From assembly GCA_029258375.1 (NCBI GenBank), contig JARHZA010000001.1:849564-913563 (forward strand): a stretch of 64,000 nt of DNA. The letters are read 5' to 3'. How positions within the stretch are numbered: the stretch's first letter is position 1; every line of letters starts with the position of its first letter. The position numbers were made by a program, and so were the translations under genes. Shown piece by piece: positions 22,055-35,461 of the stretch. The notes under the pieces were generated by a model, which was not told the origin of the DNA, did not search any database, and saw only the letters and a list, made by a program, of their open reading frames with translations. Source of the DNA: Eubacterium sp. (GTDB lineage: Bacteria; Bacillota; Clostridia; Oscillospirales; Acutalibacteraceae).

Positions 22055-23575
22055 ATGGCTACTAAAAATAATGATAAAAACAATGCCAATATAGGATTTG
22101 AAAAACAAATTTGGGATGCTGCTTGTGTTCTTTGGGGACATATTCCTGCAGCAGAATATAGAAAAGTAATTGTAGGTTTAATATTCTTGCGTTATATATC
22201 AAGCGCTTTTGAAAAGCGCTACGAAGAGCTTGTTGTTGAAGGTGACGGCTTTGAAGATGATAGAGATGCTTACATTGAAGAAAATATTTTTTTTGTTCCA
22301 AAAGAAGCTCGATGGAGTAAGATTGCTTCAGCAGCACACACTCCAGAAATTGGAACAGTTATCGATGATGCGATGAGAGCTATTGAAAAAGAAAATACAA
22401 CTTTAAAAAATGTGTTGCCTAAAAATTATGCAAGTCCTGATTTAGATAAGCGTGTGTTAGGTGAAGTTGTTGACCTTTTCACTAATAATATGAATATGGA
22501 TGATACCGAAGAAAGTAAAGACTTACTTGGTCGTACTTATGAATATTGTATCGCTCAATTTGCTGCTTATGAAGGAGTTAAGGGTGGGGAATTCTATACG
22601 CCATCAAGTGTTGTAAAAACTATTGTTGAGATTTTAAAACCTTTTGCAAATTGTCGTGTATATGACCCAGCCTGTGGTTCTGGTGGTATGTTTGTACAAA
22701 GTGCTAAATTTATACAAGCTCATAGCGGAAATAGAGGACAAATCTCTGTTTACGGACAAGAAAGCAATGCTGATACTTGGAAAATGGCAAAAATGAATAT
22801 GGCAATTCGTGGAATTGATGCCAACTTTGGTCCATATCATGCTGATACATTTTTTAATGATTTACATTCAACATTAAAAGCAGATTTTATAATGGCGAAT
22901 CCTCCATTTAACTTGAAAAACTGGGGCGCTGATAAATTACAGGATGATGTTCGTTGGAAATATGGAATACCTCCAGCAGGTAATGCGAACTATGCTTGGA
23001 TTCAACATATGATACATCATCTTGCACCAAATGGAAAAATTGGTCTTGTCCTTGCAAATGGTGCATTATCTACTCAATCTTCAGGAGAAGGGGAAATTCG
23101 TAAAAAAATAATTCAGGATGATCTTATTGAAGGCATTGTTGCTATGCCAACACAATTATTTTATAGCGTTACAATTCCAGTTACACTTTGGTTCATAACT
23201 AAAAATAAAAAGCAAAAAGGTAAAACTTTGTTTATCGATGCTCGTAATATGGGTTATATGGTTGACCGTAAGCACAGAGATTTTACTGATGAAGATATTC
23301 AAAAACTCGCAGATACATTTGAACAATTCCAAAATGGAACACTTGAAGATGTAAAAGGCTTTTGTCGTGTTGCTGATCTTCAAGAAATTGAAAAACAAGA
23401 TTTTATTCTCACACCTGGTAGATATGTAGGTATAGAAGAACAAGAAGATGATGGAGAACCATTTGAAGAAAAAATGAGTCGCTTAACATCTGAATTATCT
23501 GAAATGTTTACTAAGTCTCATGAACTCGAAGAAGAAATTCGTAAGAATTTGGGTGCTATCGGATATGAAATATAA
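22055..23575 (+). CDS. hsdM: Type I restriction-modification DNA methyltransferase subunit HsdM
   Basis: YDPACGSGGMFVQ, MANPPFNLKNWG, GGEFYTPSSVVK. Confidence 0.97.
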   Translation: MATKNNDKNNANIGFEKQIWDAACVLWGHIPAAEYRKVIVGLIFLRYISSAFEKRYEELVVEGDGFEDDRDAYIEENIFFVPKEARWSKIASAAHTPEIGTVIDDAMRAIEKENTTLKNVLPKNYASPDLDKRVLGEVVDLFTNNMNMDDTEESKDLLGRTYEYCIAQFAAYEGVKGGEFYTPSSVVKTIVEILKPFANCRVYDPACGSGGMFVQSAKFIQAHSGNRGQISVYGQESNADTWKMAKMNMAIRGIDANFGPYHADTFFNDLHSTLKADFIMANPPFNLKNWGADKLQDDVRWKYGIPPAGNANYAWIQHMIHHLAPNGKIGLVLANGALSTQSSGEGEIRKKIIQDDLIEGIVAMPTQLFYSVTIPVTLWFITKNKKQKGKTLFIDARNMGYMVDRKHRDFTDEDIQKLADTFEQFQNGTLEDVKGFCRVADLQEIEKQDFILTPGRYVGIEEQEDDGEPFEEKMSRLTSELSEMFTKSHELEEEIRKNLGAIGYEI

Positions 23576-24061: not shown

Positions 24062-24292
24062 AATTAGAGTGCTTTGGCTTGCAGAGCAAGGGTTAGCATC
24101 ATATCTTGCTATAGCGTCGCTCATAGTATTGTTAGTTATTTGTATTACAAAAGTAATAATTAAAACTAATACTGAAGGAGATGAGGCTATGGTGAATAAA
24201 AAAAGAGAAATTGTTAATGTGATGGTGGAGTGTTTATTTTCTATGGGCACAAACATAGCAGGCAATGCTCTGCTAGCCAAAGCACTCTAATT
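24062..24292. repeat. 231-bp segment bounded by 27-bp inverted repeats
   Basis: 24062-24088 aattagagtgctttggcttgcagagca; reverse complement of 24266-24292 is aattagagtgctttggctagcagagca (26/27 identical). Confidence 0.9.
24069..24290 (+). CDS. Possible small TM protein spanning the inverted-repeat segment
   Basis: GTG-start 73-aa ORF from one inverted repeat to the other; internal ATG 24189 follows ggagatgaggct. Coding status uncertain. Confidence 0.3.
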   Translation: MLWLAEQGLASYLAIASLIVLLVICITKVIIKTNTEGDEAMVNKKREIVNVMVECLFSMGTNIAGNALLAKAL

Positions 24293-24355: not shown

Positions 24356-25585
24356 ATGACTGAATGGAAAAATGTCAACCTTTCTGACATTGCTTATATT
24401 AACCCAAAAGAAAGACTGTCGAAGGGAACTTTTGCAAGGAAAATACCAATGGATGTTTTGAAACCATTTTGTAGAGACATAAATAGTTTTAGCTTTGAAA
24501 CTTTTTCTAGTGGTACGAAATTTAGAAATGGTGACACTATAATGGCAAGAATTACGCCTTGTTTAGAAAATGGTAAGACTGCCATGGTTAATTTGTTAGA
24601 TGATGGTGAGGTTGGATTTGGGTCTACTGAATATATTGTTTTTAGGGCAAAACCAAATGTTACTGATCCTTATTTTTTATATTACTTAGTTACCAGCTCA
24701 TTAGTTCGAAATCCTGCAATTAAGTCTATGGTTGGTTCATCAGGTAGGCAGAGGGTACAAATTGATGTTATAAAAAATTTGCAAATTGCTACACCTGAAT
24801 ATCAAGAACAAACAAAGATTGCTAATATATTAAAAATACTTGATGATAAAATTGAATTAAATAATAAAATAAACAATAATTTAGCTGAACAAATTAAAAC
24901 TATTTGCACGGCTTGGTTATCTGATTATGTACCCTTTGGCGGAGTAATGCCACCAGATTGGTCGGAAACATCATTAGCTGACATTGCAGAATTTATTAGT
25001 GGGTATTCATACAAAGGCAACGAACTAACAGAATCAACAATAGCAATGGCTACAATTAAAAACTTTGACCGTAAAGGTGGTTTTAAATTAGATGGTTACA
25101 AGGAAATTATACCTTCGTCTAAATTAAAAGATATACAACACGCTGACTTATTTGATACATTGGTTGCCCATACAGATCTAACGCAAAATGCTGAAGTTAT
25201 AGGTAATGCAGAACTGGTAATGAGCAAGTCTGGATATGAAGACATTGTATTTTCAATGGATTTAGTAAAGGTTTTACCTAAAACTGATAAAGTTTCTAAA
25301 TTTTTAATTGCTGCAATTCTTCAAGATAGAAAATTCAAAGCACATTGCTTAGGTTATGTAAACGGTACTACTGTTTTGCATTTAAGTAAAAAGGCGTTAC
25401 CTGAATATAAGTTATTTCTACCGAAAGAGCTTTCTGTATTAAAGCCATTGGATGAAATTGTAACAGCTTTATATCAGCAAATGTCAACAAATATTATTGA
25501 AAATATACATCTTGAACAAATTAAAAATTCACTTTTACCCAAACTAATGTCTGGAGAGTTGGATGTTTCTAACATTGCTTTTTAA
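24356..25585 (+). CDS. hsdS: Type I restriction specificity subunit HsdS (complete, expressed orientation)
   Basis: Two TRDs with DDKIELNNKINNNLAEQI central repeat and C-terminal SLLPKLMSGELDVSNI. Confidence 0.95.
   Translation: MTEWKNVNLSDIAYINPKERLSKGTFARKIPMDVLKPFCRDINSFSFETFSSGTKFRNGDTIMARITPCLENGKTAMVNLLDDGEVGFGSTEYIVFRAKPNVTDPYFLYYLVTSSLVRNPAIKSMVGSSGRQRVQIDVIKNLQIATPEYQEQTKIANILKILDDKIELNNKINNNLAEQIKTICTAWLSDYVPFGGVMPPDWSETSLADIAEFISGYSYKGNELTESTIAMATIKNFDRKGGFKLDGYKEIIPSSKLKDIQHADLFDTLVAHTDLTQNAEVIGNAELVMSKSGYEDIVFSMDLVKVLPKTDKVSKFLIAAILQDRKFKAHCLGYVNGTTVLHLSKKALPEYKLFLPKELSVLKPLDEIVTALYQQMSTNIIENIHLEQIKNSLLPKLMSGELDVSNIAF
24869..24884 (+). repeat. 16-bp recombination-site candidate A
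   Basis: ATAAACAATAATTTAG, in frame (INNNL) in hsdS. Confidence 0.85.
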
Positions 25586-26124
25586 GCCACTAAATTATTG
25601 TTTATCTCGCAGTTTGTATCTATTTTTTCATCAATAGAAGACAATAATGTTCCTATCTTTTCTTGAATAAACAAATTAGGACATTTTATTTCATATTGCG
25701 AAAAATTAGATTTATTAACAATCGGAACAGCTGTTGAAGTTTTACTATGAAAATTCAGCACTTTACCAAGTTGAATCATAGAATAATAAATAAAATCAAC
25801 ATTATATTTATCTTTATTAACAATAATCGAATTTATTTGCTGATTAGTTACTGTGTCCTCTGTTGTAATAACAACTTTACCCAAATCAGAACCAATGCAA
25901 CTTACACATACTGACTCAGCAGGGATTACATTGTTTTTCACTGAATTTCTTCCCACATCTGAAAGAGATTTATTTGTATTTTTTACATATTTTACATTCA
26001 TATCATCTGACGGAGTAAGAAATGGTGTCTCGCCTCCATAATTCTGTGGTTCAGATGTTTTGGGAGTTTTGCCTGTAATTATTTTCCCTATATCTGATAC
26101 TTGAATTGTTTTCCATTCAGCCAT
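25582..26124 (-). CDS. HsdS half-gene (TRD1 cassette, inverted), truncated right after site B
   Basis: MAEWKTIQVSDIGKIITGKTPKT...SSIDEKIDTNCEINNNLVA*; homologous layout to the first half of the expressed HsdS. Confidence 0.9.
   Translation of the reverse strand: MAEWKTIQVSDIGKIITGKTPKTSEPQNYGGETPFLTPSDDMNVKYVKNTNKSLSDVGRNSVKNNVIPAESVCVSCIGSDLGKVVITTEDTVTNQQINSIIVNKDKYNVDFIYYSMIQLGKVLNFHSKTSTAVPIVNKSNFSQYEIKCPNLFIQEKIGTLLSSIDEKIDTNCEINNNLVA
25590..25605 (-). repeat. 16-bp recombination-site candidate B (inverted)
   Basis: CTAAATTATTGTTTAT = reverse complement of site A. Confidence 0.85.
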
Positions 26125-26136
26125 ATTTCTACCTCA

Positions 26137-27117
26137 CTATCCTATATATTTTCGATGAGCAATCTTAACATTACTCTGCTTAACCATTGCGTACTGCAAT
26201 GTTGTATCTATTCTTTTATGCCCTAATAATTGCTGTAATTGTTCTATGGGCATTCCTTTATCTATCGCCATCGTTGCAAGTGTTCTTCTAAATTTATGTG
26301 GGTGAACCTTTTTAATTCCTATGTTTTTTCCCATATTTCTTAATCGTGATTCAATTCCACCTATTGACATACGAGAATATGGTGCTTTCAAAGATACGAA
26401 TAATGCTGGATCACCATCAATCCTACTATCTAAATAAGTTTGTAAATGTAGTTTGGTTCTAGCATCGAAATATACCATTCGTTCTTTGTCACCTTTACCA
26501 AATACAACACATTCTCGTTCATTAAAGTTAATATCACTTCGATTTAGTAAAACTAATTCTCCTACACGCATACCAGTAGAAGCTAATATATCTATCAGTG
26601 CTAAATCTCTTATCTCACAACAGTTATCTCTCATCAGTTCAAGTGTTTCATCAGAATAAGTTTCTTTTATATTACTTGCTGTTTTGACCTTATGAATTCG
26701 TCTAACTGGACTTTTTAGTATATAATCTTCATCTTCGAGCCAAGAAAAGAACGAAGATAAAATTCGACGAATGTTATCTATTGTAACTCTACTAGAATGT
26801 TTTTCTGTTTGATATTGTGTTAAATACGACCTTATATCATCAGTGCCAATTTCTTTAACACCTTTTTCTACAGAATTTAACATTGTTCTAATTGTTGATT
26901 CATAATAAGCTAATGACTTTTCTGAACATCCTTCTATTCTCTTTGCCGAAAGAAAAAGCTCAACAAAATCTTGTTCTTCCTCTTGGTTTGAATCAAATTC
27001 TGTTACTTCATATTTCCATAATGTATGAAGTAATACTTCTTGTAATTTTTCTATTTGTGCATTGTTTAGAAATGGTAGCATTCCTTGCAAAACATCGTTT
27101 ATAAGTATTTGTTTCAT
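26137..27117 (-). CDS. Tyrosine recombinase (XerC/D-like), putative hsdS shufflase
   Basis: LASTGMRVGELVLLNR, HPHKFRRTLATMAIDKG, LQQLLGHKRIDTTLQYAMV. Confidence 0.93.
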   Translation of the reverse strand: MKQILINDVLQGMLPFLNNAQIEKLQEVLLHTLWKYEVTEFDSNQEEEQDFVELFLSAKRIEGCSEKSLAYYESTIRTMLNSVEKGVKEIGTDDIRSYLTQYQTEKHSSRVTIDNIRRILSSFFSWLEDEDYILKSPVRRIHKVKTASNIKETYSDETLELMRDNCCEIRDLALIDILASTGMRVGELVLLNRSDINFNERECVVFGKGDKERMVYFDARTKLHLQTYLDSRIDGDPALFVSLKAPYSRMSIGGIESRLRNMGKNIGIKKVHPHKFRRTLATMAIDKGMPIEQLQQLLGHKRIDTTLQYAMVKQSNVKIAHRKYIG

Positions 27118-27202
27118 AGTAAATTCTCCTTAAAAAAAAGAACCACTATGGAGTGGAGTTCTTAATTATTTTGCCACTCACAAAATTAATTAAATTTTTG
27201 AT

Positions 27203-27394
27203 TTAAAATATGTCAATATCATCATGATCTTCCCCATCATAATGATTATAGTAGTGAAATCCATCTTCTAATGGTTTTCCACATTCACAACATATATCCC
27301 AATAACCAAACTCATCTTCATAAGTTGTTAAAACTTTACATGATAGACATTGACAATAATCTTCTCTTTCTAATTCCTTATTTCCTAATTTCAT
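27203..27394 (-). CDS. Small Cys-rich protein (CPCC/zinc-ribbon-like)
   Basis: YCQCLSCKVLTTYEDEFGYWDICCECGKPLEDGFHYY; strong RBS aggagg 8 nt before ATG. Confidence 0.65.
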   Translation of the reverse strand: MKLGNKELEREDYCQCLSCKVLTTYEDEFGYWDICCECGKPLEDGFHYYNHYDGEDHDDIDIF

Positions 27395-27420
27395 TTTTCA
27401 TTCCTCCTAGTTATAGTTAA

Positions 27421-27436
27421 ATAAACAATAATTTAG
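27421..27436 (+). repeat. 16-bp recombination-site candidate C
   Basis: ATAAACAATAATTTAG. Confidence 0.85.
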
Positions 27437-27440
27437 CGTC

Positions 27441-28079
27441 TTAAAGATCTATTTCTGATACATCCAGCTCCTCAGACATGAGTTTGGGCAACAATGAGTC
27501 ACGAAGCTGCTCTAAATAGCAGATTTCGTCGTAGTTATTGCGAATAGCGGCATCCATTGGAGCAACTATAGCCTCAAATTCATCAATCTTTTCGCTTGAA
27601 GGTATTAGAATTGGCATTCCATTCAGCGAGTTTCTGTTAATTGATCCGAAAACAGTACCTTCTCCATTAAAAACATCTAACTGCTTTTTGAGAGAGTACA
27701 TTGTGTAAAGCACGAATGATTGATGGTTAGTTTTTGAATGAATAGCTGCAAGCCCTCTACCAATACAACAGTCTGTATGAGCAACATTAAGGTCGCCTAC
27801 TGGAGCACGAACACTCATTAATGTGTCGTTGGTACAAGCCATTCGCTTCGGTTCAGTTGTATAAAGACGAACGGATGGAAACCTAAAACCAAATTCAGCT
27901 CGCCCCTGAAAGAAAACAGTGCCGTTTTTGTCCTCGTTATAACTACTGCCGCTCGGAGACTGACCCATTGTAATATCAGCTATATCGCTCACTGTACCTT
28001 CTGCCCAGTCTAAACTTGCATTATCAATGAACATTTGCTGATAGATTGCCTGTGCTTGCTGTTCTAAATTATTGTTTAT
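27441..28079 (-). CDS. Silent HsdS half-gene (TRD2 cassette) lacking its own start
   Basis: Open frame runs from site D: INNNLEQQAQAIYQQMFIDNASLDWAEGTVSDIADITMGQSPSGSS...SLLPKLMSEELDVSEIDL*; no start codon upstream of the site. Confidence 0.88.
   Translation of the reverse strand: MNNNLEQQAQAIYQQMFIDNASLDWAEGTVSDIADITMGQSPSGSSYNEDKNGTVFFQGRAEFGFRFPSVRLYTTEPKRMACTNDTLMSVRAPVGDLNVAHTDCCIGRGLAAIHSKTNHQSFVLYTMYSLKKQLDVFNGEGTVFGSINRNSLNGMPILIPSSEKIDEFEAIVAPMDAAIRNNYDEICYLEQLRDSLLPKLMSEELDVSEIDL
28064..28079 (-). repeat. 16-bp recombination-site candidate D (inverted)
   Basis: CTAAATTATTGTTTAT. Confidence 0.85.
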
Positions 28080-29510: not shown

Positions 29511-32500
29511 ATGAGCTTTACGGAAGCTGATTACGAAAATTCGATAATTGAATTGTTTAGAAGTAAATTAGGTTACGATTATGTATATGGACCAAATATC
29601 GAAAGAGATTTTTATAGTCCATTATATGAGGAGGTACTTTTAGATTCATTATATCGTTTAAACAAAGAATTACCTGAAGAAGCTATTCAAGAAGCTTTAT
29701 ATAAATTGAAAAACTTTGAAAACGGTGAACTTGTCCAGAAGAATGTTGTGTTTATGGACTATTTGCAAAATGGAATTCCTGTAAGGTATTTTAAAAATGG
29801 AGAAGAGAATTCATCTATTGTATATCTTGTAAATTATAAAGAACCTGATAAAAACTCATTTATTATTGCAAATCAATGGACCTTTATTGAAAATAGCAAT
29901 AAACGACCAGATGTCATTTTATTTTTAAATGGTTTACCAGTTGTTATTGTAGAGCTCAAATCTCCTTCACGAGAAGAAACAGATGCTTCGGAAGCTTATC
30001 GACAAATACGTAACTATATGATGGAAATACCATCAATGTTTACATATAATGCCATCTGTGTCATGAGCGACCAGTTGACTTCTAAGGCTGGTACAATAAC
30101 ATCAGGCGAAGACCGTTTTATGGAATGGAAAACTAAAGACGGTAATTATGAAAATACACAATACGCACAATTTGATACTTTTTTTGAGGGGATGTTCCAA
30201 AAAGAAAGGTTAATTGATATTATAAAAAACTTTATTTGTTTTTCTAATGAAGGTATAAAAACATTCAAAATTCTTGCGGGTTATCATCAGTATTTTGCAG
30301 TTCGTAAGGCGATTACAACAACAAAAAATGCAACTTTAACCGATGGTAAAGGTGGTGTTTTTTGGCATACACAAGGTAGTGGTAAATCATTATCTATGGT
30401 TTTTTATGCTCATTTATTACAAGAGAAATTGGACAGCCCTACAATTGTTGTTATCACTGATAGAAATGATCTCGACGATCAACTTTATGCTCAGTTTTCA
30501 AAGTGTAAAGACTTTTTAAGGCAGGAACCTATACATGCTGAAAGTAGAGAACATTTAAAAATATTACTCGATGGTAGAAAAGCTAACGGAATAATATTTA
30601 CAACAATGCAAAAGTTTGAAGAATCTTTTGATTCTCTTTCAGACAGAAGAAACATTATTGTTATGGCTGATGAAGCACACCGAGGTCAATATGGACTTGC
30701 TGAAAAAATCAAAATTACAAAAAATGAAAATGGGGAAGATGTTGCAAAGCGTGTGGTAGGTACTGCTCGTATTATTCGTAATAGCTTGCCTAATGCTACA
30801 TATATTGGTTTTACTGGTACCCCTATATCTTCAGCAGATAGAAACACCCGAGAAGTATTTGGCGAGTATATCGACATATATGACATGACTCAAGCAGTAG
30901 AAGATGGTGCTACTCGTCCTGTATATTACGAAAGTCGAGTTGTTAAACTTAATCTTGATAAAGAAACACTTAAACTTATAGATAATGAATATGATATTAT
31001 GGCTAATAATGCAGATGCTGCGGTTATAGAAAAAAGTAAGCATCAGTTGGGTAAAATGGAGGCTATTCTTGGTAATGACCAAACCATAAATTCTCTTGTT
31101 TGTGATATTCTTGATCACTATGAAAATAACCGACAAAATTTGTTAACTGGAAAGGCTATGATTGTTGCATATTCAAGGCCTATTGCAATGAAAATTTACA
31201 AACGTATTTTAGAATTACGTCCAGCATGGAATGAAAAAGTTGCTGTTGTAATGACTTCTGGTAATAATGATCCAGAAGAATGGCGAGATATTATAGGCAA
31301 TAAACAACACAAAAATGAATTGGCAAAAAAATTTAAAGATAATGATAGTCCTATGAAGATTGCTATTGTCGTTGATATGTGGTTAACAGGTTTCGATGTT
31401 CCTTCACTTGCTACAATGTATGTTTATAAACCTATGTCTGGTCATAATCTTATGCAAGCGATAGCACGTGTAAATCGTGTCTTTCGTGATAAAGAAGGCG
31501 GATTAGTTGTCGATTATATTGGTGTTGCATCTGCATTAAAACAAGCAATGAACGACTATACAACTCGTGATAAGATGAATTATGGTGATACTGATGTTGC
31601 TAAAGTAGCTTATCCTAAATTTCTTGAAAAACTTTCAATTTGTCGTGATATGCTTTTTGGATATGATTATTCAAAATTTATGACGGGAACTGATCTCGAA
31701 AGAGCAAAAACTATTAGTGGTGCTGTTAACTTTATAATAGATAGAAAAAAAGAAGAAAATAAAGAGGTTTTCATCAAAGAAGCACTTATGCTACATCAAG
31801 CACTTTCACTTTGTTCCTCATTAGTTGATGAGGCTATGAGATTTGAAGCTGCATTTTTTGAATCTGTAAGAGTTCTTGTTGTAAGACTTGAAAATAATGG
31901 GGAAGGTAAAAAAATTTCTTTACCAGAAATGAATTCGAGAATTAATGAACTTTTAAAACAAAGCATTAAAAGTGATGGAGTAATTAATCTTTTTTCTGAT
32001 ATAAAAGAGGAGTTTTCAATATTTGATCCAAAGTTTCTTCAAGAAGTTGCAAATATGAAAGAAAAAAATCTTGCAGTTGAACTTTTGAAAAAGTTGATTT
32101 CGGAACAAATATCGGTTTATCGCAGAACAAATGTTGTTAAATCTGAAAAATTTAGTGAAATAATACAGCATTCGTTAAATGCTTATTTGAACGGTATGCT
32201 TACTAATGAAGAAGTTATTGAGAAAATGCTTAAGTTAGCTAAACAAATTGCAGCAGCACAACAAGAAGGAGATAAATTAGGCTTAACTCAAGACGAACTT
32301 GCTTTCTATGATGCACTTACAAAACCACAAGCTATAAAAGACTTTTATGAAAATGAAGAATTAATTGCTATAACAAAAGAACTGACTGATACATTAAGAA
32401 AGAATAAAACTATTGATTGGCAGAAACGAGAGTCAGCAAGAGCAAAAATGCGTATGCTTATCAAAAAGCTCTTGAAAAAACATAAGTATCCACCAGATGG

Positions 32501-32570
32501 CATGGAAGATGCAGTCAAGACTGTTATGACTCAGTGTGAACTTTGGAGTGACAATGTTATGGTAATCTAA
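29511..32570 (+). CDS. hsdR: Type I restriction endonuclease subunit HsdR
   Basis: Nuclease RPDVILFLNGLPVVIVELKSP; helicase WHTQGSGKSLSM, ADEAHRGQYG, GFTGTPIS, MQAIARVNRVF. Confidence 0.97.
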   Translation: MSFTEADYENSIIELFRSKLGYDYVYGPNIERDFYSPLYEEVLLDSLYRLNKELPEEAIQEALYKLKNFENGELVQKNVVFMDYLQNGIPVRYFKNGEENSSIVYLVNYKEPDKNSFIIANQWTFIENSNKRPDVILFLNGLPVVIVELKSPSREETDASEAYRQIRNYMMEIPSMFTYNAICVMSDQLTSKAGTITSGEDRFMEWKTKDGNYENTQYAQFDTFFEGMFQKERLIDIIKNFICFSNEGIKTFKILAGYHQYFAVRKAITTTKNATLTDGKGGVFWHTQGSGKSLSMVFYAHLLQEKLDSPTIVVITDRNDLDDQLYAQFSKCKDFLRQEPIHAESREHLKILLDGRKANGIIFTTMQKFEESFDSLSDRRNIIVMADEAHRGQYGLAEKIKITKNENGEDVAKRVVGTARIIRNSLPNATYIGFTGTPISSADRNTREVFGEYIDIYDMTQAVEDGATRPVYYESRVVKLNLDKETLKLIDNEYDIMANNADAAVIEKSKHQLGKMEAILGNDQTINSLVCDILDHYENNRQNLLTGKAMIVAYSRPIAMKIYKRILELRPAWNEKVAVVMTSGNNDPEEWRDIIGNKQHKNELAKKFKDNDSPMKIAIVVDMWLTGFDVPSLATMYVYKPMSGHNLMQAIARVNRVFRDKEGGLVVDYIGVASALKQAMNDYTTRDKMNYGDTDVAKVAYPKFLEKLSICRDMLFGYDYSKFMTGTDLERAKTISGAVNFIIDRKKEENKEVFIKEALMLHQALSLCSSLVDEAMRFEAAFFESVRVLVVRLENNGEGKKISLPEMNSRINELLKQSIKSDGVINLFSDIKEEFSIFDPKFLQEVANMKEKNLAVELLKKLISEQISVYRRTNVVKSEKFSEIIQHSLNAYLNGMLTNEEVIEKMLKLAKQIAAAQQEGDKLGLTQDELAFYDALTKPQAIKDFYENEELIAITKELTDTLRKNKTIDWQKRESARAKMRMLIKKLLKKHKYPPDGMEDAVKTVMTQCELWSDNVMVI

Positions 32571-33154: not shown

Positions 33155-35461
33155 ATGTTTGAGATGGATTTTACTTGGGTTCCATTTTTTGAAGAGTTAG
33201 CAGATAAACTTTTAACTTATAAGAACGATAGACAAACTTTAATAATTAAAGTACGTGAAGCTCATAAGATTGTAGGTAAAGAATTACCAAAAATAGAAAG
33301 CAATAATGAGAATATACTAAATATCGATCCTTTTACTGTTTTTGCATTGTTTAATCGTGGCAAACAAAGTGATACTTCTCGAAAAACATTATGTACTGGT
33401 TACAAAAAGGTTTTTGAAATTGTGTCAGAATTACCAAATGATTTTAATGGTATTCCTATGTATGCATACAATAGTTATTGTTTTTATCGATTTGTTGATG
33501 GTTCTAAAAGAAATGATAATTCCTTTGATATATTGTGGGACTTATTTGAAAAAGCAATAAATTATTCAAAAGATGTTAGTAATTATAATAGTTTTGTTTG
33601 TGCTTTTGATAAGGCTATAAGTTTAGATTATGTTGGCCTTTCTAAATTAACGATGGGATTATTTCAAATAAGGCCAAATAAATTTCTTAATTTAGATAAA
33701 AGAAATGTTAATTTAATACAAAAAAATTTAAATGGTTTTGAAAATATAGATAAAATTTTAGATTGTGAGAATTACATTAAATTATGTAACTACATAAAGC
33801 AACATTTATCAGATGTATTTAATTGCTCAAATCTTCCTGAATTTTCATTTAAAGCATTTACGGAGGATAATTTAAATGAGAAAAGTCAAGTAAAAAATAA
33901 GGATAATAAAAATATGAGTACACCAACAACAGAAAGAGATTTTTCTAAAAATACAATTTTATATGGTCCTCCTGGAACAGGTAAAACATATAATACAGTT
34001 AACTATGCAGTTGCTATTATTGAAGGTAAGCCATTAGAAAAAGTTCAAAATGAAGAATACGAAAATGTTTTTCAAAGATATAAAGAATATAAACAAAAAG
34101 GCTTTATTGAGTTTACAAGTTTCCATCAATCTTACGGGTATGAAGAATTTATAGAAGGAATAAAGCCTGTAATTGATTTTGCTGATGATCAACAAAAGGA
34201 TGTGCAATATGAAATTAGTTCTGGCTTATTTAAATCGTTTTGTGATAAGGCATTACAACCTGTATTCAAGAATCAAAAACAAGAGTTAGGTGTTAATGAT
34301 TCACCTACTATTTGGAAGGTGTCTCTTGAAAGTACATATGAAAATAAGACTCGTACGGAATGTTTGAAAAACAACCATATAAGAATAGGATATGACAGTT
34401 ATGGAGAAACCATAACTAATGATATGAATTTTGATTGTGGAGGAAAATATATTCTTAATGCTTTTATTTCTAATATGAGAATCGGCGATATTGTTATGTC
34501 TTGTTATAATAACACGACTATCGACGCAATTGGTGTTGTTACAGGTGATTATGAGTGGCATAGTGAATATGAAAAATATAAAAGATTACGAAAGGTTAAT
34601 TGGTTAGTCAAAAATATTCGTGAAGATATTCTTGATATAAATAATGGCGTTACTTTTACACTTTCAACTGTTTATAGACTTAAAATATCTTTGAAAGATG
34701 TTATGGATATAATTAAGAAATATTCAAATTTTAAGAATTTTGTTGAAGAAAAGAAGAAAAATTATGTATTCATAATTGACGAAATTAATAGAGGTAATAT
34801 ATCTAAAATATTTGGTGAACTAATAACTTTGATAGAAGAAACAAAACGTATTGGAAAATCTGAAGAATTAAAGGTTAGACTCCCATATTCTAAAGAAGTT
34901 TTTGGTGTACCAAACAATGTTTACATACTTGGTACTATGAATACTTCTGACCGTTCAATTGCAGCAATAGACACTGCTTTAAGACGTAGATTTAGCTTTA
35001 AGGAAATGTTGCCTAATGCTAATTTACTTAAAGGTGTTAAAGTTGGCGATGTTGATATTGAGCAAATGCTCGAAGTAATGAATAAAAAAATTACTGCACT
35101 ATATGATAGAGAACATACTATTGGTCATTCTTATTTGTTGCCATTGAAGAAAGACAACTCACTTGATAATTTAGCGAATATATTTGAAAATAAGATTATT
35201 CCGTTACTTCAAGAATATTTCTTTGAAGATTATGAGAAAATTCAACTCGTTTTAGGCGATAATTATAAAGACGATACTAATAAATTTATCGTAAAGCATA
35301 CAGATAATTTTAATGCACTTTTTGGTAGCGGAGATAGTGATAACTATGCTGATGATTTTATTACTTATGAAATCAACAAAGAAGCATTTCATAACATAGA
35401 GTCATATAAGGCTATTTGTAGAACTGGAGAAAAGAATGAAAAAGTCATATCAAATAACTGA
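33155..35461 (+). CDS. mcrB: McrB-type AAA+ restriction GTPase with EVE-like insertion
   Basis: YGPPGTGKTYNTVNYA; FTSFHQSYGYEEFIEGIKP; FIIDEINRGNISKIFGELITLIE; GTMNTSDRSIAAIDTALRRRFSF; insert WKVSLESTYENKT...NNHIRIGYDSYGE...IGDIVMSCYNNTTIDAIGVVTGDYEW. Confidence 0.93.
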   Translation: MFEMDFTWVPFFEELADKLLTYKNDRQTLIIKVREAHKIVGKELPKIESNNENILNIDPFTVFALFNRGKQSDTSRKTLCTGYKKVFEIVSELPNDFNGIPMYAYNSYCFYRFVDGSKRNDNSFDILWDLFEKAINYSKDVSNYNSFVCAFDKAISLDYVGLSKLTMGLFQIRPNKFLNLDKRNVNLIQKNLNGFENIDKILDCENYIKLCNYIKQHLSDVFNCSNLPEFSFKAFTEDNLNEKSQVKNKDNKNMSTPTTERDFSKNTILYGPPGTGKTYNTVNYAVAIIEGKPLEKVQNEEYENVFQRYKEYKQKGFIEFTSFHQSYGYEEFIEGIKPVIDFADDQQKDVQYEISSGLFKSFCDKALQPVFKNQKQELGVNDSPTIWKVSLESTYENKTRTECLKNNHIRIGYDSYGETITNDMNFDCGGKYILNAFISNMRIGDIVMSCYNNTTIDAIGVVTGDYEWHSEYEKYKRLRKVNWLVKNIREDILDINNGVTFTLSTVYRLKISLKDVMDIIKKYSNFKNFVEEKKKNYVFIIDEINRGNISKIFGELITLIEETKRIGKSEELKVRLPYSKEVFGVPNNVYILGTMNTSDRSIAAIDTALRRRFSFKEMLPNANLLKGVKVGDVDIEQMLEVMNKKITALYDREHTIGHSYLLPLKKDNSLDNLANIFENKIIPLLQEYFFEDYEKIQLVLGDNYKDDTNKFIVKHTDNFNALFGSGDSDNYADDFITYEINKEAFHNIESYKAICRTGEKNEKVISNN

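What the first reader, a model, noticed from the sequence alone, without database searches (positions are those of the whole stretch)
24356..28079. Cassette-type phase-variable type I specificity locus: four copies of one 16-bp site bracket two TRD2 cassettes
Seen directly: ATAAACAATAATTTAG occurs at 24869 (+), 25590 (-), 27421 (+) and 28064 (-). Sites A/B bracket the second half of the expressed hsdS; sites C/D bracket a start-less second half. A separate first half (26124-25606, minus) runs into B and ends INNNLVA*. All coding copies are in the same frame (INNNL), so inversion gives clean joints. A/B inversion moves TRD2a from TRD1a to TRD1b; A/D inversion puts the silent TRD2 behind TRD1a. 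Up to four TRD1/TRD2 combinations seem reachable. A tyrosine recombinase lies between the cassettes. Invertible hsdS systems with a resident recombinase are established knowledge; the short 16-bp core and the two self-contained invertible TRD2 cassettes are the unusual part.
Basis: partly seen in the sequence, partly recalled or inferred. Interest (0 to 1): 0.78.

Follow-up and report, generated by a model that had tools for sequence, protein, structure and literature searches.

The report
Shuffling DNA-recognition gene with RNA-gated recombinase
This bacterium can probably reshuffle the part of a DNA-defence enzyme that chooses which sequence is marked, using four copies of one short site and its own recombinase; the arrangement is a widespread, already described type, but the recombinase gene also carries a conserved, apparently undescribed folded RNA leader that may control how often the switch is thrown.

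Summary
All joints are in frame; single inversions reach 16 arrangements and four full-length HsdS proteins.

The 'unusual part' is not unusual. The same architecture and core (TAAA-N6-TTTA) recur in at least 80 loci, mostly Bacillota, and Streptococcus suis SsuCC20p is an experimentally proven, recombinase-dependent example. I file the locus as a new member of that kind.

(1) In 77 of 85 non-redundant loci exactly one hsdS is complete, and in 81 of 85 the recombinase points with hsdM. Free, independent inversions do not predict this; coordinated double exchange or selection does. (2) The window is one of four loci with the recombinase segment inverted. (3) The recombinase leader folds into a strongly covarying H-type pseudoknot plus a hairpin hiding the ribosome site and start codon. 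It is present in the window, tied to this recombinase clade, and without an Rfam match.

Switching in this strain itself is untested.

The parts
22055..23575 (+). hsdM, type I methyltransferase subunit
   Evidence: Pfam N6_Mtase 6e-111 and HsdM_N
24356..24868 (+). TRD1a: fixed first half of the complete hsdS (hsdS ORF 24356-25585, 409 aa)
   Evidence: ORF; Methylase_S 1.9e-22
24869..24884 (+). site A, ATAAACAATAATTTAG, in frame I-N-N-N-L
24885..25589 (+). segment 1: TRD2a cassette, joined to TRD1a in this assembly
   Evidence: 83% identical to a cassette of Granulicatella L071
25590..25605 (-). site B, inverted copy
25582..26124 (-). TRD1b half-gene with its own ATG 12 bp after the recombinase stop; truncated at INNNLVA*
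26137..27117 (-). tyrosine recombinase (XerA/XerD-like), 326 aa, with the R, K, HxxR, H and Y catalytic residues
   Evidence: Phage_integrase 1.7e-30; NF040815 above cutoff; aligned to XerA 5hxy
27115..27212 (-). leader RNA of the recombinase: pseudoknot helices P1/P2 and a hairpin covering ribosome site and start codon
   Evidence: covariance model R1, 47.3 bits, E 5e-10, window not in the training set; covariation in relatives
27203..27394 (-). 63-aa cysteine-rich ORF carried in the recombinase segment
   Evidence: ORF; no Pfam match
27421..27436 (+). site C, non-coding here
27437..28063 (-). segment 3: silent TRD2b cassette without start codon (reading frame 28079-27441), GC 41.5% against about 30-32% for its neighbours
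   Evidence: 89% identical to a cassette of Massiliimalia L121
28064..28079 (-). site D, encodes the I-N-N-N-L start of TRD2b
29511..32570 (+). hsdR, type I restriction subunit
   Evidence: Pfam HSDR_N, SWI2_SNF2; TIGR00348

Best explanation
[quoted passage not shown] The resident tyrosine recombinase exchanges strands inside a 14-16-bp core, TAAA-N6-TTTA, whose central six bases are the same at all four sites of a locus. Exchange moves two TRD2 cassettes between two TRD1 halves: one fixed behind hsdM, one carried with the recombinase. This yields four possible HsdS specificities plus clean half-proteins ending INNNL(A/V)A. Shown: anatomy, in-frame joints, natural inversions in relatives with endpoints on the core, and a near-universal rule of one complete hsdS per locus. 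Inferred: that it switches in this strain, that this recombinase does it, that switching usually occurs as a coordinated double exchange, and that translation of the recombinase is damped by its structured leader RNA.
For: Four exact sites and in-frame products. Same four-site plan around homologous recombinases in many genera. L121 versus L123: flanks 97-99.9% identical, the A/B cassette inverted at 99.8%, overlap limited to the 14-bp core. L107 versus L177: recombinase segment inverted at 99.1%. 28 of 53 locus pairs with recombinases at least 93% identical are in different states. 24 of 54 contig ends in the set lie within 135 bp of a core, about 2 expected, many exactly at it, as when neighbours are mixed in the sample. 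The S. suis homologue switches and requires its recombinase (PMC10790761). Leader RNA: 90% paired, covariation 0.358 against at most 0.126 for slid controls.
Against: No reads, methylome or second isolate of this strain were available, so switching here is not shown. The recombinase is inverted relative to hsdM in this window (4 of 85 loci), which could be a locked or rare state. TRD1b lies on the strand opposite hsdM and no promoter for it was demonstrated; the consensus promoter scan found no more than chance.
Confidence: 0.85

Rival explanations
1. Independent single inversions at any inverted pair (A/B, B/C, C/D, A/D), with no coupling.
For: All 16 arrangements are reachable in silico. The window itself and L050, L177, L191 show the recombinase segment inverted, a single-inversion product.
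Against: Uncoupled inversion predicts half of codirectional loci with zero or two complete hsdS and half of all loci with an inverted recombinase. Observed: 73/81 with exactly one, 4/85 inverted. The bias survives thinning to recombinases under 80% identity (28/31, p 5e-6).
Confidence: 0.2
2. Excision through directly repeated pairs (A/C or B/D) and reintegration at the other pair, as in the pneumococcal tvr locus: the two TRD2 cassettes trade places without inverting.
For: In one stroke it preserves both invariants seen in the survey, recombinase direction and exactly one complete hsdS (inference). L124 versus L125 have a TRD2 cassette at exchanged positions. tvr uses circles (PMC6265443).
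Against: It cannot invert a cassette in place, yet L121/L123 show that. It would leave the reverse-oriented TRD2 never used, although silent TRD2s are intact. No circle was looked for.
Confidence: 0.3
3. Free inversions, with selection removing cells that have no complete HsdS, two complete HsdS, or an inverted recombinase.
For: Explains the rarity, not absence, of the off-rule states: 6 none, 2 both, 4 inverted.
Against: The S. suis authors report no strain with two or no complete hsdS and no inverted xerD in assemblies, and no read with two complete hsdS in an ordinary culture (PMC10790761). Two complete HsdS should not be lethal (general knowledge of type I systems).
Confidence: 0.35
4. A frozen relic: the sites are conserved because they encode the HsdS linker (I-N-x-N-L), not because they recombine.
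For: Three of four copies are coding in the conserved linker.
Against: C is non-coding here, the outer ends of cassettes carry the core in every four-site locus, the central hexamer is locus-specific yet shared within a locus, and natural inversions end on the core.
Confidence: 0.05

Closest known systems
SsuCC20p of Streptococcus suis (PMC10790761; first described in PMC5198162)
   Same: hsdM, hsdR, four TRDs, a XerD-like recombinase between them; TRD2 and TRD4 each flanked by the same short inverted repeat (14 bp, TAAATCATCATTTA = TAAA-N6-TTTA); TRD3 next to the recombinase; one complete hsdS at a time; four alleles.
   Different: Other central hexamer (CAATAA here), a more distant host, recombinase segment inverted here (a state not seen in S. 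suis assemblies), and a pseudoknot leader. Switching is proven there, not here.
tvr / SpnIV of Streptococcus pneumoniae (PMC6265443)
   Same: Resident tyrosine recombinase shuffles TRDs through short repeats; recombinase expression is restrained by a leader element.
   Different: tvr repeats all share one orientation and act by excision-reintegration; it carries tvrAT toxin-antitoxin homologues; its attenuator is a hairpin, not this pseudoknot.
cod / ivr / SpnD39III of S. pneumoniae with PsrA (CreX) (PMC7096588, PMC7394358)
   Same: Tyrosine recombinase acting on a 15-bp repeat inside hsdS; same purpose.
   Different: Three different repeat pairs (15 bp, 85 bp and about 300 bp) and silent hsdS copies used as sequence donors; here one site four times and a TRD1b with its own start.
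REBASE survey of duplicated hsdS with inverted repeats (PMC7394358)
   Same: Catalogue of phase-variable type I loci.
   Different: It required at least 20 bp of exact inverted repeat, so 16-bp cores such as these fall below its cut-off unless the flanks happen to match.

Membership tests
SsuCC20p-type cassette-shuffling type I locus | hsdM, hsdR and four TRDs (two first halves, two second halves) in one locus | tested here: met
SsuCC20p-type cassette-shuffling type I locus | tyrosine recombinase between the TRDs, with a first-half TRD directly after it | tested here: met
   26137-27117 (-), TRD1b ATG 12 bp after its stop
SsuCC20p-type cassette-shuffling type I locus | both second-half TRDs flanked by the same short inverted repeat TAAA-N6-TTTA | tested here: met
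   S. suis sequence from PMC10790761
SsuCC20p-type cassette-shuffling type I locus | exactly one complete hsdS | tested here: met
   TRD1a-TRD2a 409 aa; TRD1b truncated
SsuCC20p-type cassette-shuffling type I locus | switching depends on the recombinase | not testable with these tools
   needs a deletion strain
tvr (SpnIV) excision-reintegration locus | all repeats in one orientation | tested here: not met
   sites are +,-,+,-
tvr (SpnIV) excision-reintegration locus | tvrAT toxin-antitoxin next to the recombinase | tested here: not met
   only a 63-aa cysteine-rich ORF beside the recombinase, no Pfam match
cod / SpnD39III type | several different inverted-repeat pairs of 15 to about 300 bp in duplicated hsdS genes | tested here: not met
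   one 16-bp site four times; no other long exact inverted repeat pair inside the hsdS array
Tyrosine recombinase (XerA/C/D-like) | catalytic R-K-HxxR-H-Y set and Phage_integrase domain | tested here: met
Known Rfam cis-regulatory RNA (leader) | match to any of 4227 Rfam families | tested here: not met
   no plausible match in the window or in 13 relatives at E up to 1-10

The most novel reading that the evidence does not exclude
The whole family works as a counted switch: coordinated double exchange keeps exactly one complete hsdS and leaves the recombinase in place, and the rate is set by an undescribed pseudoknot leader RNA that senses something (a ligand, or a protein of the system) and opens or closes the ribosome site of the recombinase mRNA.
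Probability: 0.3. Interest if true: 0.78.

Novelty: new member of a known kind. Interest (0 to 1): 0.5.

Why it matters
Phase-variable type I systems change which sites in a genome are methylated and restricted, with effects on phage defence and on expression of many genes. This locus belongs to a class known experimentally from one streptococcal system. The survey suggests it is common in Bacillota, obeys a one-complete-hsdS rule whose mechanism the S. suis authors left open, and uses a core too short for the published REBASE screen. The conserved leader of the recombinase, if it is a regulatory RNA, would give a first handle on what controls the switching rate, and is directly testable with a reporter.

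Tried and rejected
Rfam searches of the window and 13 relatives gave only chance-level matches. I recalled an 'xerDC' RNA motif; the paper (PMC2864571) describes STAXI, tandem pseudoknots near XerDC integrases and other genes, which is not the same arrangement. A check with RF01732 was mis-aimed (that family is asd) and says nothing. One search was a malformed query and returned an error. An alternative pairing GGAAC/GTTCT that would free the ribosome site is 97% pairable but shows no covariation, so I do not claim it. A generic pseudoknot scan of the AT-rich window leader was not significant against shuffles; the claim for the window rests on the covariance model. Intrinsic-terminator scanning of leaders found few (7 of 85, against 11 of 425 shuffles), so a general terminator attenuator is not supported. 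The consensus promoter scan was uninformative. Homologous recombination was considered and rejected: the inverted pairs share too little sequence (16 bp exact; 77 bp at 79% for one pair).

Full report
Observation. Beyond the 16 bp the flanks of the copies differ. hsdM (22055-23575) and hsdR (29511-32570) are intact and on the + strand; the complete hsdS is 24356-25585.

Anatomy. The sites alternate +,-,+,- and cut the locus into three segments: TRD2a (A-B), recombinase plus TRD1b (B-C), TRD2b (C-D). TRD1a is fixed outside A, behind hsdM. Each segment is bounded by inverted sites, so any of A/B, B/C, C/D and A/D can invert; A/C and B/D are direct pairs and would excise. In silico all 16 arrangements are reachable by single inversions and give four complete HsdS (409, 411, 383 and 385 aa) or half-proteins ending INNNL(V/A)(A/S). 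With the recombinase oriented as in this window, TRD1a and TRD1b face the two ends of the same cassette, so exactly one is complete whatever else flips; with the usual orientation this is not forced.

Relatives. One scan of 85,488 species genomes for the recombinase gave at least 587 relatives; the best 80 were fetched, and more came from other collections. By record title the same plan recurs in Lachnospiraceae, Oscillospiraceae, Ruminococcus, Peptostreptococcus, Streptococcus, Enterococcus, Granulicatella, Listeria, Megasphaera and others. The core is TAAA-N6-TTTA. The central hexamer differs between loci (13 types in 85 loci) but is essentially constant within a locus: 65 of 85 loci have a single hexamer among coding sites, and the rest are mostly the same site read on the other strand. 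This is what strand-swapping homology of a tyrosine recombinase would require (inference). At truncated joints 114 of 157 end in (A/V)A-stop directly after the core.

Natural rearrangements. L121 and L123 have 97-99.9% identical flanks and a cassette inverted at 99.8%, with overlaps of only the 14-bp core. L107 and L177 differ by inversion of the recombinase segment at 99.1%. Several contigs begin and end exactly at the core, as an assembler would do if two neighbours coexist; in metagenome assemblies strain mixture could cause the same.

One-hsdS rule. For 85 non-redundant loci in which both TRD1 halves could be scored: TRD1a complete and TRD1b truncated 37, the reverse 36, none 6, both 2, recombinase inverted 4. 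Exactly one complete in 77/85; within codirectional loci 73/81. Thinning by recombinase identity leaves the result. hsdM lies upstream of and codirectional with the recombinase in nearly all; the window and L050 are exceptions. The S. suis authors found the same in that species, no strain with two or no complete hsdS and no inverted xerD in assemblies, and proposed coordinated double recombination (PMC10790761). The window is therefore in the single-recombination state they looked for and did not find in assemblies. I cannot separate coordinated exchange from selection. Scoring used open-frame length (at least 110 codons) on either side of a core, and loci with fragmented or unrecognised sites are left out.

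Leader RNA. The roughly 100 nt upstream of the recombinase start are conserved among relatives. In 69 leaders, P1 (7 bp) and P2 (7 bp, its 5' arm inside the P1 loop) form an H-type pseudoknot: 93% of cells paired, 155 cells with both sides changed, covariation 0.492 against at most 0.161 for slid controls. P3 pairs the ribosome site and the bases before the start codon with GTCGTTCTC; it is 87% paired with two covarying pairs, so weaker by covariation. A covariance model of P1+P3 built without the window finds the window leader at 47 bits, and genome-wide hits in 19 named genomes lie at the recombinase gene, second copies included. More distant recombinases lack it. No Rfam family matches. That it regulates translation is inference from the position of P3.

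Cassette traffic. TRD2b has 41.5% GC in a locus of about 30-32% and is 89% identical to a cassette in Massiliimalia; TRD2a is 83% identical to one in Granulicatella. Cassettes seem to move between families.

Verdict. What deserves follow-up is the one-hsdS rule, the inverted recombinase state seen here, and the leader RNA.

Noticed in passing
27115-27212 (-); relatives in alignment A1: Conserved, covarying pseudoknot leader with a ribosome-site hairpin upstream of the hsdS-shuffling recombinase; no Rfam match; restricted to one recombinase clade.
   Followed up: yes
27437-28063: TRD2b cassette has 41.5% GC against about 30-32% around it and close relatives in other families, so it was probably acquired horizontally.
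   Followed up: partly
24062-24292: 27-bp inverted repeat (96%) around a 73-aa ORF between hsdM and hsdS; single copy in the genome, so not an active multicopy element.
   Followed up: partly
27203-27394 (-): 63-aa cysteine-rich ORF inside the recombinase segment without a Pfam match; L101 has a similar sequence upstream of its recombinase.
   Followed up: no
33155-35461 (+): AAA_5 ATPase (McrB-like) next to hsdR, possibly a second restriction system.
   Followed up: no
L066 and L104: Two tandem copies of recombinase segment and cassette in one locus, as unequal exchange or an assembly error would give.
   Followed up: no
L124 versus L125: TRD1 halves as well as TRD2 cassettes appear exchanged between the two hsdS positions (95% identity).
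   Followed up: partly
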